DNA of 24,546 nt, taken from IMG/VR virus record IMGVR_UViG_3300018080_000574, positions 1 through 24,546 of that record. The stretch is one strand, 5' to 3'. Origin of the DNA: a virus. The translations under genes and the position numbers were made by a program. The notes below the pieces were generated by a model, which worked only from the letters and a program-made list of their open reading frames with translations, was not told the DNA's origin and did no database searches. Shown one piece after another: positions 8,310-16,328 of the stretch. Each line of letters begins with the position of its first letter. Position 1 is the stretch's first letter.

Positions 8310-10277
8310 ATGGCTCAGGCTCCGGGCGTACACATCCGTGAAACGGACGTGCTAAGGACAATCGAGGGTGTCCCCGTAGACATCGCGGCGGCTTTTGGAG
8401 TCGCTCAAAGGGGACCGGACAATGAACTTCGGTTGGTCATCTCGTTTGATGACTTTCAGGGGAAATATGGGAGCTTTTATCAAGGCTCTTACCTCCCGCA
8501 TTTGGTCCGGGGCTTTTTCCGGCAAGGCGGGACGGCTCTCTACATCGGGCGCACGGTTGGCTCCGGTGCGGCCAAATCCGCTGGAGCGGCTGATGCCGTT
8601 GGCGGCGTGGCGGACACCGTGGACATCCAGGGCCGCGACGTGGGAGAGTACGGAAACTCCATCCTCTCCGATTTCACCAAAGCGGAAACTACCCTCACGG
8701 CGGCTTCGGCGGCGATTGACACGGAGATCACCGTGGCCTCCATCGGACAGTTTGAGTTGGGTGACTGCATTGTGATGAACGATGGCTCCAACAAGTACAC
8801 CGGGATCGTGGTTGGCGTGGACGTGCCCACCAAAAAGCTCAAATTGAGCGTGGCGGTAGGCTTCATCTTTGCCATCGGGGTGGAGGTCAAGACCTCAACC
8901 TCTCATCGAGCCAACACCAAAATCGTGACCGGTTTCGCGGTGGGAGCATCCACCGTCCAGTTCACCGTGACCAACTCCTTCAACATCCGGGTGGGAGACC
9001 TCCTGATGATCATGACGGGAGACATCTCCACGGACTATATGTTCACGGAGGTCCGCGTCACCGGCGTGAACGGGTCCACGATTTTCGCGGACGTTCTCAA
9101 TGAGGACAACAGCGTCATCACCACGATGCCAGCCGACGCTCACGTGACCGTCCAGGGGTTCAACGTCACCACCACCTACAACGGGGTGGGACAGACCTAC
9201 TCCTTCATCTCACTGGAGTCCGAGAACGCCATCGACTACGTGGATGAACGTCTTGGCGGAGAGCGCAACGAGTCCGATCTTGTTGAGTTGCTCGACGCCG
9301 GGAACGTGGAGGTCACCAACTGGCGGATCGAGCAATATCCCGCTCCCTACCAGTGGGCAATGTCCGGGGGCTTGGACGGTGCCGCTCCGGCGGACATCGA
9401 CTATCTCGGGACCAACCCGGCCAAGGCGTACAAGCACGGCATCCGTCTGATGGATGAAAATTACCAGATCAGCACCTTTGCCATCCCCGGTGTCACGTCG
9501 GCGGGCGTCATCGGCGGGGCCGATTCTTACGCTCAGGGAAAGCGTTTGGATTTCGTGGGAGACTGCCCTTTGGCGGCGGACACCCTGGATGAGCTTCTGG
9601 AGTACCGGAATTTCACCTTGGGACTGGACACCTCCTACACGGCCATCTATGCGCCGTGGTTCCGGGAGGAGAATCCCCAAATCCCCGGCGCTCTCTTGGA
9701 GCTTCCTCCCTCATGCCGTCAATTAGGAGTCAACTCCTCCACGGCGGCAAGAGAAGGCGTCCACAAGGCTCCGGCCAACGTGGAATACTACGATACGGTC
9801 AATCTGGTGGCGGATTTCTCCGAGACTGAGCACGGCATTCTCAACGAAGCCGGGATCAACCTCATTCGGATCTTCCCTGGACGCGGTATCAGGGTGTTCG
9901 GAGCGCGGACCCTCTACTCCGGCAGAGACGGCAGACAGTTCGTGCCCGTCCGGAGGCTGGCAAACTACGTGGAGAGGTCCGTGGCCAACTTGGCCTTTGA
10001 GTTCACGTTTGACGTTATCACGGAGGTCTTGTGGGCACGTATCGCCGGGGCCATTGACCGGTTCCTCCGCAACCTCTGGAAGGCGGGGATGCTCTATCCG
10101 CGTAACGACGCCACCCGCGCCTTCTTTGTCCTCATCAATGAGGGCCTCAACCCCACGGAGGTGGTCCGAGAAGGCCGCGTCCGGGGCAAGGTAGCGTTCT
10201 CTCCGGCCCCTCCGGCGGAGCAGATTGAGTTGGACATTGCACTTTGGGCGGGTAATTCCGAGATCGCTGAAGGCTAA
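8310..10277 (+). CDS. Contractile tail sheath protein
   Basis: AAGGAGGTGG precedes the ATG. The product is 655 residues. The N-terminus has the sheath signature APGVHIRETD followed by AAFGVAQRGP and later RQGGTALYIGR. The C-terminal third has the conserved sheath domain, with RRLANYVERSVANLAF, a long helix (WARIAGAIDRFLRNLWKAGM), and a last strand used in sheath handshaking. The protein polymerises around the tube and contracts on infection. Residues about 122-195 and 200-290 are two inserted beta-rich modules of similar plan (each with a TxxTVxx strand, then F-x-x-GD and a hydrophobic strand), probably exposed on the sheath surface. Codon bias is strongly toward C or G, as in the capsid gene. 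Confidence 0.93.
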   Translation: MAQAPGVHIRETDVLRTIEGVPVDIAAAFGVAQRGPDNELRLVISFDDFQGKYGSFYQGSYLPHLVRGFFRQGGTALYIGRTVGSGAAKSAGAADAVGGVADTVDIQGRDVGEYGNSILSDFTKAETTLTAASAAIDTEITVASIGQFELGDCIVMNDGSNKYTGIVVGVDVPTKKLKLSVAVGFIFAIGVEVKTSTSHRANTKIVTGFAVGASTVQFTVTNSFNIRVGDLLMIMTGDISTDYMFTEVRVTGVNGSTIFADVLNEDNSVITTMPADAHVTVQGFNVTTTYNGVGQTYSFISLESENAIDYVDERLGGERNESDLVELLDAGNVEVTNWRIEQYPAPYQWAMSGGLDGAAPADIDYLGTNPAKAYKHGIRLMDENYQISTFAIPGVTSAGVIGGADSYAQGKRLDFVGDCPLAADTLDELLEYRNFTLGLDTSYTAIYAPWFREENPQIPGALLELPPSCRQLGVNSSTAAREGVHKAPANVEYYDTVNLVADFSETEHGILNEAGINLIRIFPGRGIRVFGARTLYSGRDGRQFVPVRRLANYVERSVANLAFEFTFDVITEVLWARIAGAIDRFLRNLWKAGMLYPRNDATRAFFVLINEGLNPTEVVREGRVRGKVAFSPAPPAEQIELDIALWAGNSEIAEG

Positions 10278-10302: not shown

Positions 10303-10815
10303 ATGGCCGATTTCCTTTTTGGAAAACGAGTGGATCCGTATCGTGGGTTCAGGTTCCGGGTGCTGGACGTATCCGGCGTTGAACTTGGCGGGTTTACCAC
10401 GGTCAGCGGCCTCAGAGACGAGACAGAGGTAGTTGAATACCGTGAAGGAGTGGATGGGATCACCGCCCGGAAGCTCCCCGGTTTCACGACCTCTGACAAC
10501 ATCGTCTTAGAGAGAGGTCTTTCCGTGGATGAAACCCTCCAAGAATGGCGGAATGAGGTATGGAGCGCCGAGCAGGACAACACCGTCCTACCGGACTCCG
10601 AGTTCCGCCGCGACATCATCATCCAGCTTCTCGATCAGAGAGGTCAGGTGGTGAAACAATGGAAGATCCTGGAGGCATGGCCCACCATCTATGAGGTTGA
10701 CACCTTGGATGCCATGTCCTCAGACGTTCTTCTTGAACGGGTTGAGTTGGCAAATGAAGGCCACTACCTTATCCCGACCGCAACGGGATTGGGTGGGGCC
10801 ACACCGCAAGGCTAA
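10303..10815 (+). CDS. Tail tube protein (T4 gp19 / Hcp-like)
   Basis: TGAGGAGGTAAG precedes the ATG. The product is 170 residues, the usual size. The gp19-type pattern is clear: FRFRVLD near the N-terminus, the segment FTTVSGLRDETEVVEYREG at 31-49, a KLPGFTTSDNIVLERG hairpin, then helix, and the final strands IIIQLLDQRGQVVKQW and VLLERVELANEG. Rings of this protein stack into the inner tube through which DNA passes. It follows the sheath, as is usual in contractile tails, and ends directly before a 14-base palindrome. Confidence 0.92.
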   Translation: MADFLFGKRVDPYRGFRFRVLDVSGVELGGFTTVSGLRDETEVVEYREGVDGITARKLPGFTTSDNIVLERGLSVDETLQEWRNEVWSAEQDNTVLPDSEFRRDIIIQLLDQRGQVVKQWKILEAWPTIYEVDTLDAMSSDVLLERVELANEGHYLIPTATGLGGATPQG

Positions 10816-10897: not shown

Positions 10898-11731
10898 ATG
10901 GAACAGGAAACGAAGCAGGGACCGCCCAAAGCGGCTCCCAATGTAGACCCGTCTGGAGTGCAACTTTTCAGGAAGCCCGTAGGGGAGGTGGAAATTGACC
11001 TTCCTTGCGGGCTTCTAATTGATGGAGAGGTCTACAAGAAGGCCGTCATCACCCCGCTCACTGGCCGGGACCGGAAGGCCATGGTGGACCAAAAATCCCG
11101 GAGCAACCCATCCAAGGTAGTCACCAAACTACTCACCAACCGGCTCCTCAGTCTCGGACCTTACAAGCATCCGGTGGCTGATGTCCGGATCAAGGCTCTC
11201 CTCTCAGGGGACAGGGAATACATCGTCTACAAGCTCTACGAGATCACCGACCCCACCAGGAAGGATCTGGAGGCCACCCTTCAGTGCCAAAACCGGGCGT
11301 GTGGTTCTAACTTCGAGTTCAACGTGCCCTTTGATGAGGTCAAGGTCATCCGAATGACCGACGCCGATCAGGAACGCATCCATGATGGCAAAAAGACCCG
11401 GTATTGGGAGTTCGAGGATGAGGAGTGGGCGGTCAAGGCCAAGTTCCGCTACGTGGACGGAAAAATCCAGGAGCAAGTGTCTCCCCGGCTGGCGTCAAAC
11501 CCGGTGGAGGGAGAGTACATGCTCTTTTCCAAGATGATCCTGGAGTGGAACGGCCTCACCAGCCTTACCATGGATCAAATCGAAACGCTCCCGGAGCCTC
11601 TCATTCGCAAGGTGGAGAAGGCTCTGGCGGACCATAAACTCGGGCCGGATATGGACCTCAACATCGTATGCCCGGAATGTGGCGTGGCCACCAGAGGAGG
11701 GCTGGATTTCACAACTTTTTTGTTCAGATAG
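10898..11731 (+). CDS. Tail assembly chaperone / T4 gp26-like protein, zero-frame product
   Basis: TGAGGAGG precedes the ATG. The zero-frame product is 277 residues. It has the plan of the T4 gp26-like (T4_baseplate) family found before tape measure genes in contractile systems: a beta-rich N-terminus, an LTGRDRKAM segment near 54-62, helical repeats with LLSGDREYIVYKLYE at 101-115, a Cys pair at 130 and 135, and a second pair in CPECG at 258-262. The two pairs probably form one zinc site. The family usually ends in Phe-rich residues shortly after the last Cys pair, as here. By analogy to lambda G and P2 E, it is expected to chaperone the tape measure before tube assembly. It stops at TAG within a frameshift signal. 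Confidence 0.8.
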   Translation: MEQETKQGPPKAAPNVDPSGVQLFRKPVGEVEIDLPCGLLIDGEVYKKAVITPLTGRDRKAMVDQKSRSNPSKVVTKLLTNRLLSLGPYKHPVADVRIKALLSGDREYIVYKLYEITDPTRKDLEATLQCQNRACGSNFEFNVPFDEVKVIRMTDADQERIHDGKKTRYWEFEDEEWAVKAKFRYVDGKIQEQVSPRLASNPVEGEYMLFSKMILEWNGLTSLTMDQIETLPEPLIRKVEKALADHKLGPDMDLNIVCPECGVATRGGLDFTTFLFR

Positions 11732-11976
11732 TGACCAATGACAAGCTCACCGATATGTATGACAAGGTGATGTTTGCTCTGGCGTGTGAGCTTCATTGGT
11801 CATGGCATGAAATGTTGGATATGCCGATCCCGGAGTTGATGAAATTTTTTACCCTCCTCAAGGAAAAGAAGGAAGCGGAGAAGGCGCATATGGACAAAGT
11901 GAACGCCAAGAGTAGGACAGGAGGGTCTAAACCGGCCCGGCGGTCCAGCGCCCGTCCAAGCAGAGGGAGAAGATAA
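10898..11976 (+). CDS. Extended tail assembly chaperone made by -1 frameshift
   Basis: At the heptamer T TTT TTG (11716-11722) ribosomes can slip back one base, avoid the TAG at 11729 and continue in the -1 frame from GTT at 11722 to the TAA at 11974. This gives a fusion of about 359 residues: 275 from the zero frame plus 84. The extension is helical (DKLTDMYDKVMFALACELHW, then a helix of MPIPELMKFFTLLKEKKEA) and ends in a Ser/Arg-rich basic tail. It lacks a good independent start: GTG at 11731 and ATG at 11755 have no ribosome site. The fusion ends one base before the tape measure ATG. This matches lambda gpGT and P2 gpE+E', which use the longer form to bind the tape measure. Confidence 0.8.
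11693..11803 (+). promoter_or_regulatory. Programmed -1 ribosomal frameshift signal
   Basis: Three elements are in order. An SD-like tract AGAGGAGGG is at 11693-11701, 14 bases before the slippery site. The heptamer TTTTTTG at 11716-11722 sits in the zero frame as T TTT TTG. A stem begins 9 bases later: 11732-11740 pairs with 11794-11802 (9 pairs) and, after a 2-base bulge at 11741-11742, 11743-11750 pairs with 11786-11793 (8 pairs), leaving a 35-base loop. All 17 pairs are Watson-Crick. The same three-part plan stimulates frameshifting in dnaX, and the same heptamer is used in phage P2 gpE. Confidence 0.8.
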
Positions 11977-14900
11977 ATGGCTTTTGGTGGCGGAGGAATG
12001 TCAAGCTCAGTAGGGCTTGGGTTCGTGATGGGACTCACTGATAACGTGTCCGGCACGGCGGGCAAGATTGGTGCGGCCATCGTGACTCTACGGACCCGAA
12101 TTCAGGCCCTCCAGACCGGCTTCCTTGTCCTTGGAGGCGCTCTGGCCGGGATGGGTGCCGCTCTTGGAGGGGTGCTCATGAAGGGGGTGAAGGACGCCGC
12201 TCAGTTTGAGGTACAGATGCGGATGCTCCAGTCCATCACCGGTCTCACGTGGCAAGAGACCAAACAACTTGGGGATGAGTTTGACCGTATCACTGCCACC
12301 CTTCCAATGTCCTCCTCCGAATTGGCCACCATGGCCATTGCCGCCGGTAAGCTCGGCTTGGCCTCCAAGGCGGGTGTAGAAGGTCTGAAGGAGGTGGCCA
12401 TCCAAGCCACCTACATGGGCAAGGCCCTTGGCTTCTCGGGAGAGGAATCCATCAACATGATTGGACGGTTGGGGACCGTCTTTGGGATGCTCGATGCCGG
12501 GAACATCTACAATAGCTGGGAAAAAAGCGCACAAGATTTTTATGATGTGGCGGCTATGGGGGCTGAAAAGAACAATTTGGTTCAAGCTCAGATGATGCAC
12601 AACGTCAAGGGGTTGGCGGCTTCGCTGACTCAGATGTCCTTTGCCTCCTCCCAGAGCGCGGATTTCCTTTCGGATATGTCCGTCCGTGCCGCTCAGGGTG
12701 CCAAGGTAATGCAAAAGACGGCGGCTGAAACCGTGGCCTTGGCCGGTATCTTGGCTGACGTTGGTGTGAGGGCTGAGGCTGGAGGAACAGCCTTAAACAA
12801 GTTCTTCACGGGTTTCCGTAAGAATATGGGCGGCTACGAGATGATGATAAAGGAGTTCGGGGCTGACAAGCTAGGGTTGGGATTCCAAGAGTTGAAGGAT
12901 CTTACGCGGGACAAGCCACACGAAGCGGTCAATCGTCTCCTGGAGGCCATGGGCAAGGCTAAGTTCCTCGATCCAGTCAAGTTTGAGGCCATGGCGGACG
13001 CCATGGGCATGAAAAACGTGAGGATCGCAAACGTGGTCAAGGGGTTGGCCGATGCCGGAAACACCATGGTGACGGTCAACGCGGGTATGTATGAAAGTTT
13101 CCTCAAGCTCAGTCCCGAATTGGCCTCCGTTGCTATAGACGCGGGGAACGGGGCAAAGAAAATCTCCAAGTTGCGTTGGATGCAGTTAATGTCTACCAAA
13201 GCATTTGATGAGGCTTCCGTCGCCGCCTCTGCGTACAATAACGTGGCTCAGACCACTGCAATGAACTGGAAAATTATGACGGGATCCATCACCAACGTCT
13301 CCAAGAAATTGGGAGGGATGCTTTTACCATCTATTCAAAATCTTCTCCAGACCGCCGTTAATTTGATGGGCAAACTTTTTGGCATGAATGACACCTTCTT
13401 CAAGATCACGGCGGCGGTGGTGGGGACCACGGCGGCTATCCTCGCGCTCTCGGGTGCGGTCCTTTTGGGTGCCTCAGCGTGGTCCATGTTCGGGAGCGCC
13501 ATGATGGCGGCACTATTACCAGCTCTGGTTATCGTCGGAGCCATTTCGGCGGCAGTTGCGGGATTCGTGGTGGTGATGAAGCTCTTGGGCAAGGAAGGTG
13601 AAGGTATATTTGGGACGTTTGCCCGACTCGTGGAGGGGGCGTTTACTCAGTTCTTAAATTTTGCTCAGGGATTCACGGAAGCGTGGGCGGCGATGAGCAA
13701 GCACTTTTTGAAGCCGTGGAATGAGGCCATGAGCCTCTTTAGGCAGGGCATTGATAATATCAAGGGAGTCCTTCCTCCATTGAAAGGCGCAAAAGATATG
13801 TTCCAAGCCCTTGGGGTGGTGCTGGCCACGGTTTTTGGATCTGCTCTCCGCAGGGTGGGGAAACAGGTAGAGTGGCTTTCGGTCATGTTCTCAGGGTTCT
13901 CCTTGGGATTCAGGATGCAAGTCGGAGACCGCTTAGTTGCTCCCATCAAAAGCATATTGAAGTCCCTTGAGCAAATTGGCGCGGCTTTTTTCAAAATTTT
14001 TGTGGGTCTCATGCCATCCGGAGTGAGGGATTTGACAAAGGATTTCCTCAAGTTTCGGGATAAGGGTAAGTCGGTGGCCGACAAGGTAGTGGCTGCCTTT
14101 GAGGCCATTGCGGGATCTTTGGAAGTTGTTGTGGGCCTATTGAATGGAGAAGGGCCTAAAGCCTTTAAGGCATTTGGTAAGGACGGGAAATATGCCGCAA
14201 ACTCATATGCAGAAGCCATTCTAAGGTTATCCAAGGCTTATGATGGCCTCTTTAAGAAAACCAAGATGCTCGATGCCTTCAGACAACTATGGGCGGATTT
14301 TTTGGGGGGCATGAAGGCACGGGCCATTCCTACGTTGCGGGGAGTTCTCCTCCTTGTTGCCGGGATTATGGAGGGCTTGGGTAAATCAGGACCGGCTTTA
14401 GAGTCCGGGATGGCCGGAATTGTCAGCATCATGGGGAGCATCGGAAAGGCGTTCTTGGGCGTCTCCAAATTGACCGGTAAGTTGACGGGGGTTCTCGGAG
14501 CCTTCTTGGGCGGAGCCGTCTCGTACCTCCTTCCTGGATTTTTGGATCTATGGGCGAGGGTGACTACGGTGATCGCCGGGATTTTGGCCCCCGTGGGGAC
14601 GCTTTTGCAAGCCTTGGGGGAGATGCCCATTCAGCTTGAGGCGTTTACCGCTTTGGGGGAGGGTGTAGGCAAGTTCCTGAGCGGCATTGGCAATGTTTTT
14701 GGGGTGCTAATTGAGCGGACGGGTAAGCAGACCAAAGCCTTTTTGGAGGGGTTTGTCCAAGGATTTGCGGCTTTTATAGTCCCCATTGGAGCGGCTTTGA
14801 ACGAGATTGCGGTCATGGCCGGATGGGTTTTTGGGATGATCGGAGATGCCCTCAACTCAGTAACAGGGGATTCGGAGAGTACCGGAGCGATGCTTAGAAC

Positions 14901-15789
14901 CATTGGCACAATAATAGGGGTCGTAATCGGAGGTGCGATTCAAATAATGCTGCTCGGGGTGGTGACGGTGATCTACGCTCTTGGGAACATGATCAACCTT
15001 TGGATGCTTTTCATTAATCTGGCCAAGGCAGGAACAACGGTTTTCACCAACGGTCCTCGAATTTTCATGGCAACTATAGACTTGTTGAAGGCCAAGTTGA
15101 CCAACGTGTTTGCCTCCTTGCAAGTTATGATGATCACGCTGGCGGCGGGCTTGGCCAAGGCTGTTTTGGTGGCCTTGAAAAGTATCCCTGGAATAGGGAT
15201 GCTCCTGGATCTAAAGGGAGCTTCAAAGCAGATCGACGCCATGAAGGCCGCCGGTATCGAGTCGGCGCAAGGCGGAAAAGTTGGGAGAAGCGAGATGGCC
15301 GGGTTGGAGGAGACCTTCAGAGGAGCGACGGCGGAGACACGTAATGCCGTTGGAGAAGCTCTAGGGACTTTTACGGAGGCAAGTTCAGTTGGATTCGACA
15401 AATGGCTTACCGCCGGGGACAACATTTTGAACGCTCAGGATCGGAGTGCGGATTCCACGGATAGGATTGCATCAATACTGGCGGCTGGACAAACCAATGT
15501 GGGGGAGCCTAAAGTGGTGGCAAGCCCTTCTCCTATAATCTCACCCACCCTCACGGCGGCTCCTACGGCGGCAGCGGCTCCGGTGATGGACCCGGCTCCG
15601 ATTGCGGCGGCAATTTCTAACGTGACGGTTGACCCCACGATTGAGAACACGGTGAATTTCACGGCGCAACAGAGCTACGTGCTTCATGCCACGGCGGTGT
15701 TCCCTGGAATTGCCAACACGATGAAGGCTTATGAGAGGCGGTTGTCCGCCGTGGAGCGTAGGTCAGTGGTACAAGGAGGAGGGACGTAA
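11977..15789 (+). CDS. Tape measure protein
   Basis: GAGGGAG precedes the ATG, which follows the frameshift product stop directly. The product is 1270 residues, the largest in the window. Residues about 30-60 are a hydrophobic Gly/Ala segment. Residues about 65-370 match the phage minor-tail/tape-measure domain (QFEVQMRMLQSITGLTWQE, TALNKFFTGFRK). Hydrophobic stretches at about 474-535 and 974-1015 could become membrane-inserted on ejection. Long helical regions and an Ala/Pro-rich segment near 1185-1215 follow. The protein sets tail length; at the usual 0.15 nm per residue it would predict a tail of roughly 190 nm. No peptidase or lysozyme motif is evident to me. Confidence 0.9.
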   Translation: MAFGGGGMSSSVGLGFVMGLTDNVSGTAGKIGAAIVTLRTRIQALQTGFLVLGGALAGMGAALGGVLMKGVKDAAQFEVQMRMLQSITGLTWQETKQLGDEFDRITATLPMSSSELATMAIAAGKLGLASKAGVEGLKEVAIQATYMGKALGFSGEESINMIGRLGTVFGMLDAGNIYNSWEKSAQDFYDVAAMGAEKNNLVQAQMMHNVKGLAASLTQMSFASSQSADFLSDMSVRAAQGAKVMQKTAAETVALAGILADVGVRAEAGGTALNKFFTGFRKNMGGYEMMIKEFGADKLGLGFQELKDLTRDKPHEAVNRLLEAMGKAKFLDPVKFEAMADAMGMKNVRIANVVKGLADAGNTMVTVNAGMYESFLKLSPELASVAIDAGNGAKKISKLRWMQLMSTKAFDEASVAASAYNNVAQTTAMNWKIMTGSITNVSKKLGGMLLPSIQNLLQTAVNLMGKLFGMNDTFFKITAAVVGTTAAILALSGAVLLGASAWSMFGSAMMAALLPALVIVGAISAAVAGFVVVMKLLGKEGEGIFGTFARLVEGAFTQFLNFAQGFTEAWAAMSKHFLKPWNEAMSLFRQGIDNIKGVLPPLKGAKDMFQALGVVLATVFGSALRRVGKQVEWLSVMFSGFSLGFRMQVGDRLVAPIKSILKSLEQIGAAFFKIFVGLMPSGVRDLTKDFLKFRDKGKSVADKVVAAFEAIAGSLEVVVGLLNGEGPKAFKAFGKDGKYAANSYAEAILRLSKAYDGLFKKTKMLDAFRQLWADFLGGMKARAIPTLRGVLLLVAGIMEGLGKSGPALESGMAGIVSIMGSIGKAFLGVSKLTGKLTGVLGAFLGGAVSYLLPGFLDLWARVTTVIAGILAPVGTLLQALGEMPIQLEAFTALGEGVGKFLSGIGNVFGVLIERTGKQTKAFLEGFVQGFAAFIVPIGAALNEIAVMAGWVFGMIGDALNSVTGDSESTGAMLRTIGTIIGVVIGGAIQIMLLGVVTVIYALGNMINLWMLFINLAKAGTTVFTNGPRIFMATIDLLKAKLTNVFASLQVMMITLAAGLAKAVLVALKSIPGIGMLLDLKGASKQIDAMKAAGIESAQGGKVGRSEMAGLEETFRGATAETRNAVGEALGTFTEASSVGFDKWLTAGDNILNAQDRSADSTDRIASILAAGQTNVGEPKVVASPSPIISPTLTAAPTAAAAPVMDPAPIAAAISNVTVDPTIENTVNFTAQQSYVLHATAVFPGIANTMKAYERRLSAVERRSVVQGGGT

Positions 15790-16328
15790 TGCCTTCAGGA
15801 TTCGGTTTCATACCTCCGGGGCAGGGAAGGTCTCCTGAAGATTGGAGGTCCAACCCTACCAAGGTGAGGTTCCTCAATCTGAGGTCACGGGAGACGCTTG
15901 CGATGATGTACAATCCGGAGGGGTTGTCCACCAGTGAGGAGGCCAAGTGGAGTGAGGTGACGGTTCCGGGTGCTCCTGATGTCTACCACCAGTTCGTCTC
16001 CGGCGGAGCCTTCAGCTTCGGGATGTCGCTATTTCTTAACGAGTTCAAGGAGGGGCGGAACTATGAGCGCGGGTACGTGGAAAACTCCATCCTTTTTTTG
16101 AGGGAGGCCATGATCTCGCGGGACTTGGAGTACGGCGGGAGAATCATCCGGCAAGCTCCTGATGTGGTCAGGGTGTTTTGGGGACAGATCAAGTTTTCCG
16201 AACCGGCTCCGGGGATCAACGTCATCATCACCTCCATGAATGTGGAGCGGATTATGTTTGACGGGGACACCGGTAACGCCGTGAGGGCATTTGTGGACCT
16301 GGAGCTAAAGAGGTTCTCCTTTGTGTAG
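15789..16328 (+). CDS. Tube-baseplate adaptor (CIS-tube-like protein)
   Basis: The start overlaps the tape measure stop (TAATG) and has GGAGGAGGG upstream. The product is 179 residues. Residues 25-80 have the pattern of the CIS-tube family: strands TKVRFLNL and ETLAMMYNPEGLS, where Asn-Pro-Glu is typical, followed by a variable loop and AFSFGMSLFLNEF. The C-terminal half is another tube-like barrel (GINVIITSMNVERIMFDG). Members extend the tube at its baseplate end, as gp54 does in T4. The next gene carries the LysM-like part that in some contractile injection systems is fused to this domain. Confidence 0.68.
   Translation: MPSGFGFIPPGQGRSPEDWRSNPTKVRFLNLRSRETLAMMYNPEGLSTSEEAKWSEVTVPGAPDVYHQFVSGGAFSFGMSLFLNEFKEGRNYERGYVENSILFLREAMISRDLEYGGRIIRQAPDVVRVFWGQIKFSEPAPGINVIITSMNVERIMFDGDTGNAVRAFVDLELKRFSFV

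What the first reader, a model, noticed from the sequence alone, without database searches (positions are those of the whole stretch)
11693..11803. Three-part programmed -1 frameshift signal in the tail assembly chaperone gene
Seen in the sequence: an SD-like AGAGGAGGG, 14 bases on a T TTT TTG heptamer in the right phase, then 9 bases on a 17-pair stem with one 2-base bulge and a 35-base loop. The zero-frame stop lies in the spacer. Slipping back one base joins an 84-residue reading frame that lacks its own good start and ends directly before the tape measure. Known: lambda G/GT and P2 E/E' do this, and P2 uses the same heptamer. The combination of an upstream SD-like tract with such a long downstream stem resembles dnaX and looks unusually strong for a tail chaperone.
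Basis: partly seen in the sequence, partly recalled or inferred. Interest (0 to 1): 0.72.

Follow-up and report, generated by a model that had tools for sequence, protein, structure and literature searches.

The report
Frameshift in a phage tail-chaperone gene

Summary
The three-part signal is present exactly as described: AGAGGAGGG, 14 nt, T TTT TTG, 9 nt, then a 17-pair stem, with the zero-frame TAG in the spacer. It very probably drives -1 frameshifting that fuses an 84-aa helical extension to the upstream protein. That protein is a T4 gp26-type (PF12322/phrog_150) hub-assembly chaperone, not a recognisable G or E homologue.

About 66 non-identical homologous loci fall into two groups. Fifteen, the window included, carry an in-phase T6[C/G] with the extension in the -1 frame. 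Fifty-one carry an in-frame TTT followed by C with the extension in the +1 frame; in some of these TTT is only 2-4% of Phe codons.

The sister lineage L004 (tail tube 82% identical) ends in the same F-L-F-R-stop but reads TTC TTG TTT CGA instead of TTT TTG TTC AGA, with 2 extra bases after the shared TAG. Its extension is therefore in the +1 frame. It nests inside the -1 clade.

The SD-like tract and its spacing recur in relative L113. The stem does not, so the dnaX-like reading is only partly supported. The signal is a new member of a known kind; the direction flip runs against a published generalisation. No experiment has been done.

The parts
10898..11731 (+). zero-frame gene, 277 aa, T4 gp26-type tail/hub assembly chaperone (short form, TAC-N)
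   Evidence: PF12322 E 6.5e-6 above its cut-off, phrog_150 E 9.9e-8; AF2 model pLDDT 89.7 matches T4-like hub-assembly proteins
11693..11701 (+). SD-like AGAGGAGGG, probable 5' stimulator, 14 nt before the heptamer
   Evidence: duplex -12.5 kcal/mol, top 1% of 12-mers; same spacing in L113, -13.2
11716..11722 (+). slippery heptamer T_TTT_TTG in phase
   Evidence: in-phase T6[C/G] in 15 -1 loci including the window
11729..11731 (+). zero-frame stop TAG, overlapping a GTG (TAGTG) without SD
11732..11802 (+). downstream hairpin: 17 pairs, 2-nt bulge, 35-nt loop; possible 3' stimulator, seen only in this lineage
   Evidence: not conserved
11716..11976 (+). -1-frame extension ORF from the shift site (84 codons after the heptamer), three predicted helices, C-terminal part of the fusion (TAC-NC)
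   Evidence: conserved domain in 34 loci; model pLDDT 82.8
11977..15789 (+). tape measure gene, directly downstream
   Evidence: phrog_28 E 2.6e-27

Best explanation
The gene is a gp26-type tail-assembly-chaperone gene. Most ribosomes read ...TTT TTG TTC AGA TAG and make the 277-aa chaperone (TAC-N). A minority slip back one base on U_UUU_UUG, pass the stop, and make a fusion of about 360 aa (TAC-NC). By analogy with lambda G/GT, the fusion would link the tape measure to tail-tube subunits through its helical C-terminal domain. The upstream SD-like tract probably raises the slip rate, and the downstream stem may do so as well. The conserved trait in this family is the fusion, not the direction of the slip: the sister lineage L004 most likely reaches the same product by a +1 slip on UUU_CGA. 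Shown by computation: anatomy, homology, frames, codon-level conservation, tree. Inferred: slippage itself, its efficiency, the stimulators, the job of the proteins.
For: In-phase T6[C/G] with the extension in the -1 frame in 15 loci including the window. L113 (tube 79%) repeats SD-like tract, 14-nt spacing, TTT TTG TTC AGG TAG and the -1 frame. In 51 +1 loci every one has in-frame TTT followed by C near the stop, also where TTT is 2-4% of Phe codons. The extension is a conserved domain across both groups. 18 of 34 loci have no start codon before its conserved Trp. L040 holds both domains in one frame. Gene order tube - gp26-like - extension - tape measure. gp26 family.
Against: No experiment. 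The stem is not conserved. A GTG overlaps the stop (TAGTG), so a restart in this one genome is not excluded. Three other in-phase T6[C/G] occur in the window, so the heptamer alone proves nothing.
Confidence: 0.88

Rival explanations
1. The extension is a separate small gene translated by stop-restart coupling: GTG 11731 overlapping the TAG in the window, GTG 9422 in L004.
For: TAGTG overlap in the window; AGGA 8 nt before GTG 9422 in L004 (SD duplex -3.9); an ATG overlaps the zero-frame stop in L011.
Against: No SD for GTG 11731; 18 of 34 relatives have no ATG, GTG or TTG before the conserved Trp; the slip-site codons are conserved against codon bias; L040 has an in-frame fusion.
Confidence: 0.07
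2. Transcriptional slippage on the run of T changes the frame in the mRNA, not the ribosome.
For: The -1 group has a T run; PMC3711429 takes non-conserved direction among orthologues as a sign of transcriptional slippage.
Against: The run is exactly six T in all T6 loci and always in the phase a ribosome needs; the +1 loci, L004 included, have no T run longer than three or so at the site.
Confidence: 0.04
3. The L004 arrangement, and so the direction flip, is an assembly error or a decayed gene; only the -1 signal is real.
For: Only one +1 lineage is known inside the -1 clade, and all data there are metagenomic.
Against: L004 and L005, from different sample IDs, have the identical site, and L001 has the window's. 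L004 differs by a 2-nt gap plus codon changes that make exactly the TTT C site of 50 other loci, and its extension is still 45% identical.
Confidence: 0.04

Closest known systems
Phage P2 E/E+E' and P2-like phages of the Burkholderia cepacia complex (PMC3091744)
   Same: TTTTTTG heptamer, -1 shift, position between tail proteins and tape measure
   Different: different protein family; no downstream hairpin reported there; here an SD-like tract and a strong stem in one lineage
Phage lambda G/GT (PMC5009743)
   Same: short chaperone plus frameshifted long form, upstream of the tape measure
   Different: no G homology found; slip site and protein family differ
T4 gp26/gp51 hub assembly chaperones (PMC3004832)
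   Same: same protein family as the zero-frame product (PF12322)
Tail assembly chaperone of Pseudomonas phage Adele and Vandenendeviridae/Andersonviridae (PMC12846349)
   Same: poly-T (GTTTTT) -1 site near the end of the chaperone gene, extension annotated as a separate gene
   Different: one conserved direction in that family; no protein homology tested here
HF1-group haloviruses TTT-CGC +1 site (PMC7230728) and influenza PA-X UCC_UUU_CGU (PMC3498833)
   Same: TTT CGN, as in sister L004
   Different: the window itself has TTC AGA; HF2's chaperone is not detected by the gp26 profile
E. coli dnaX -1 signal (PMC5009743)
   Same: SD-like tract, heptamer and stem in the same order
   Different: A-rich heptamer (from memory), 11-pair stem; here the stem is not conserved, and the slip lengthens rather than shortens the product

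Membership tests
Tail assembly chaperone with programmed frameshift (G/GT type) | two overlapping frames between tail tube and tape measure | tested here: met
[quoted passage not shown]
Tail assembly chaperone with programmed frameshift (G/GT type) | extension conserved as protein and without a usable start of its own | tested here: met
   weak GTG 11731 noted
Tail assembly chaperone with programmed frameshift (G/GT type) | both products made in a fixed ratio and absent from or transient in the virion | not testable with these tools
   needs mass spectrometry or reporters
T4 gp26 family (PF12322 / phrog_150) | profile match above the curated cut-off | tested here: met
   26.4 bits against cut-off 24.5; 34 of 35 homologues match at E <= 0.01
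dnaX-type three-part -1 signal | SD-like tract 9-14 nt before the heptamer | tested here: met
   14 nt in window and L113; range from PMC5009743
dnaX-type three-part -1 signal | downstream stem conserved in relatives | tested here: not met
UUU_CGN +1 frameshift sites (for sister L004 only) | in-frame UUU followed by CGN, extension in the +1 frame | tested here: met
   TTG TTT CGA TAG in L004 and L005, +1 frame open 76 codons

The most novel reading that the evidence does not exclude
Programmed frameshift direction can flip between sister phages while the fusion protein is kept. Synonymous codon changes in F-L-F-R (TTT TTG TTC AGA against TTC TTG TTT CGA) plus a 2-nt indel replaced a -1 heptamer by a +1 UUU_CGA site, so L004 arrived on its own at the +1 site used by distant actinophages. 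PMC3711429 reports that direction is conserved among orthologues that use ribosomal frameshifting; in influenza PA-X, UUU_CGU to UUC_AGA, the Phe-Arg codon pair that the window carries, abolishes the +1 shift (PMC3498833).
Probability: 0.72. Interest if true: 0.6.

Novelty: new member of a known kind. Interest (0 to 1): 0.45.

Why it matters
It places programmed frameshifting firmly in the gp26-type chaperones of a wide group of uncultivated and Streptomyces myophages, where the extension is annotated as a separate hypothetical gene or missed. The window/L004 pair is a natural swap experiment: selection keeps the chaperone fusion while the slip direction changes. That makes the question of how frameshift sites originate and interconvert directly testable with short reporter constructs.

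Tried and rejected
G or E homology of the upstream protein: not found.

Covariation of the frameshift stem: only L113 is near enough and it keeps 17 of 27 pairs, so no support. Stems downstream in L011 (about 43 nt off) and L048 vanish against protein-preserving nulls.

SD-like tract as a family trait: rejected beyond the window, L113 and L004 group (L022 and a few others have weaker tracts).

Stop-restart as the general mode: rejected, since 18 of 34 loci lack any start codon.

Pattern scan for the FT.FLFR-stop motif: only known loci plus one chance match, L098. Genome-contig scan: two distant actinobacterial loci, not pursued. HF2 chaperone as a gp26 relative: not supported. Fold search of the extension: no hit below E 0.001. 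Rfam: nothing. search_dna_similar with the extension: no credible hit.

Full report
WHAT IS THERE. The window is a 24.5-kb virus record carrying a contractile-tail module: sheath 8310-10277, tube 10303-10815, a 277-aa gene 10898-11731, tape measure 11977-15789, then further tail and baseplate genes. In-phase T TTT TT[C/G] is found at 4 of about 8,080 codons in the window, so one lying 13 nt before the stop of exactly this gene is unlikely by chance. The stem has z -3.7; about 0.7% of sliding windows reach that value, and 4 of 2000 protein-preserving randomisations fold as well.

WHAT THE PROTEINS ARE. The upstream protein matches PF12322 (T4_baseplate) and phrog_150, as do 34 of 35 homologues. 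A T4 review lists gp26 and gp51 as hub-assembly chaperones (PMC3004832). The AlphaFold model (pLDDT 89.7) matches T4-like hub-assembly proteins in the viral library; its only plausible solved relative is the HK97 tail assembly chaperone 2ob9 (probability 0.87 but E 0.62; weak). The extension is predicted as three helices, and its family has a conserved aromatic G-W-S/T core. A contiguous in-frame fusion of both domains exists in L040, which supports the fusion as a functional product.

RELATIVES. Scans with tube and sheath gave about 90 loci with a gp26-like gene after the tube. The frame of the extension relative to gp26 splits them. In the -1 group, the window, L113, L011, L012, L013, L014, L015, L018-L022, L024, L048 and L095 have an in-phase T6[C/G] of exactly six T. 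L117 lacks it but has A_AAT_TTT in phase two codons before its stop (my reading). In the +1 group (51 loci, among them Streptomyces phages BRock, LuckySocke and pSt2308, and L004) every locus has TTT followed by C within a few codons of the stop, even where TTT is only 2-4% of Phe codons. These counts include near relatives and are not independent events. In 18 of 34 aligned loci there is no ATG, GTG or TTG before the conserved Trp of the extension, so a separate start cannot be the general route.

THE DIRECTION FLIP. L004 (and L005 from another sample) is the closest distinct lineage: tube 82%, gp26-like 53%, extension 45% identical. Both gp26-like proteins end F-L-F-R-stop. The window reads TTT TTG TTC AGA TAG; L004 reads TTC TTG TTT CGA TAG. 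The alignment puts a 2-nt gap just after the shared TAG, which leaves the L004 extension in the +1 frame. L113 (tube 79%) has TTT TTG TTC AGG TAG and the -1 frame. In a tree of tube plus gp26 without its last 12 residues, window and L004 are sisters (94/89), L113 joins them (98/99), and L011, L048, L012 and L014, all -1, lie outside. At least two changes of direction are forced, and grouping window, L113 and L011 without L004 is rejected (AU p = 0.007; that group was named after a first tree had been seen). So L004 most likely switched from -1 to +1 on its own. In influenza PA-X, UUU_CGU to UUC_AGA abolishes the +1 shift (PMC3498833); the window carries TTC AGA. A survey of prokaryotic genes states that direction is conserved among orthologues that use ribosomal frameshifting (PMC3711429); if the L004 shift is confirmed, this pair is a counter-example. 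A restart at GTG 9422 in L004 (AGGA 8 nt upstream) remains possible for that one lineage.

STIMULATORS. The SD-like tract recurs in L113 (GAAGGAGGT, -13.2 kcal/mol) at the same 14-nt spacing, inside the 9-14 nt range given for -1 shifts (PMC5009743). It also encodes a conserved Gly-Gly, and L004 has a G-rich tract there too, so it is suggestive rather than proven; most more distant -1 members lack a comparable one. The stem is exceptional in the window but not shared: L113 keeps 17 of 27 pairs with z -1.1, L004 has z -0.8. P2-like phages are reported without such a hairpin (PMC3091744), so a three-part signal in this position would be unusual, but here it rests on one lineage plus its near-identical copy L001.

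KNOWN OR NEW. Frameshifted tail chaperones are a known kind. TTTTTTG is the P2 site. A conserved GTTTTT -1 signal in tail-chaperone genes is published for Vandenendeviridae and Andersonviridae (PMC12846349). A +1 TTT-CGC site in this gene position was proposed for HF1-group haloviruses (PMC7230728; sequence seen). The window is thus a new member of a known kind. What I did not find described is the flip of direction between sister phages and the breadth of the +1 TTT C group in bacterial myophages. The literature at hand is open-access only, and Vladimirov et al. 2022 could not be read.

A SECOND RNA FEATURE. The most structured place in the window is not the frameshift stem but a hairpin in the first part of the same gene (10964-11023; z -7.5 for 10940-11040). 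Four relatives, aligned without gaps on their codons, keep 75 of 88 pair cells, with 5 of 22 pairs showing compensatory double changes, against 38-49 cells for slid partners. The structure was taken from the window, so the cell count leans its way; the double changes do not. It is reported under things noticed.

SHOWN AND INFERRED. Shown by computation: anatomy, homology, frames, codon-level conservation and the tree. Inferred: that ribosomes slip, at what rate, that the SD-like tract and stem stimulate, and that the products act as chaperones of the tape measure.

Noticed in passing
window 10964-11023 (L004 8647-8706, L113 4610-4669, L011 5908-5967): Very strong hairpin inside the first part of the gp26-like coding sequence, conserved in four relatives with 5 compensatory double changes in 22 pairs (z -7.5); hairpins also at the same place in L082, L065, L088. 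No Rfam family. Function unknown; mRNA processing or control of chaperone level would be first guesses.
   Followed up: partly
L007, L008, L009 and about 45 IMG/VR loci, e.g. L008 6716-6940: Streptomyces and related phages have a conserved TTT C +1 site at the end of the gp26-like gene; the +1 extension is annotated as a separate small hypothetical gene or missed.
   Followed up: yes
L040 3929-4192: gp26-like and extension domains lie in one continuous frame, a natural in-frame fusion (or an assembly error).
   Followed up: partly
L117 around 3413: -1 relative without T6[C/G] but with A_AAT_TTT in phase two codons before the stop.
   Followed up: no
window 13986, 14298, 16094: Three other in-phase T TTT TT[C/G] heptamers, two in the tape-measure gene and one in the gene at 15789-16328; probably chance.
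   Followed up: no
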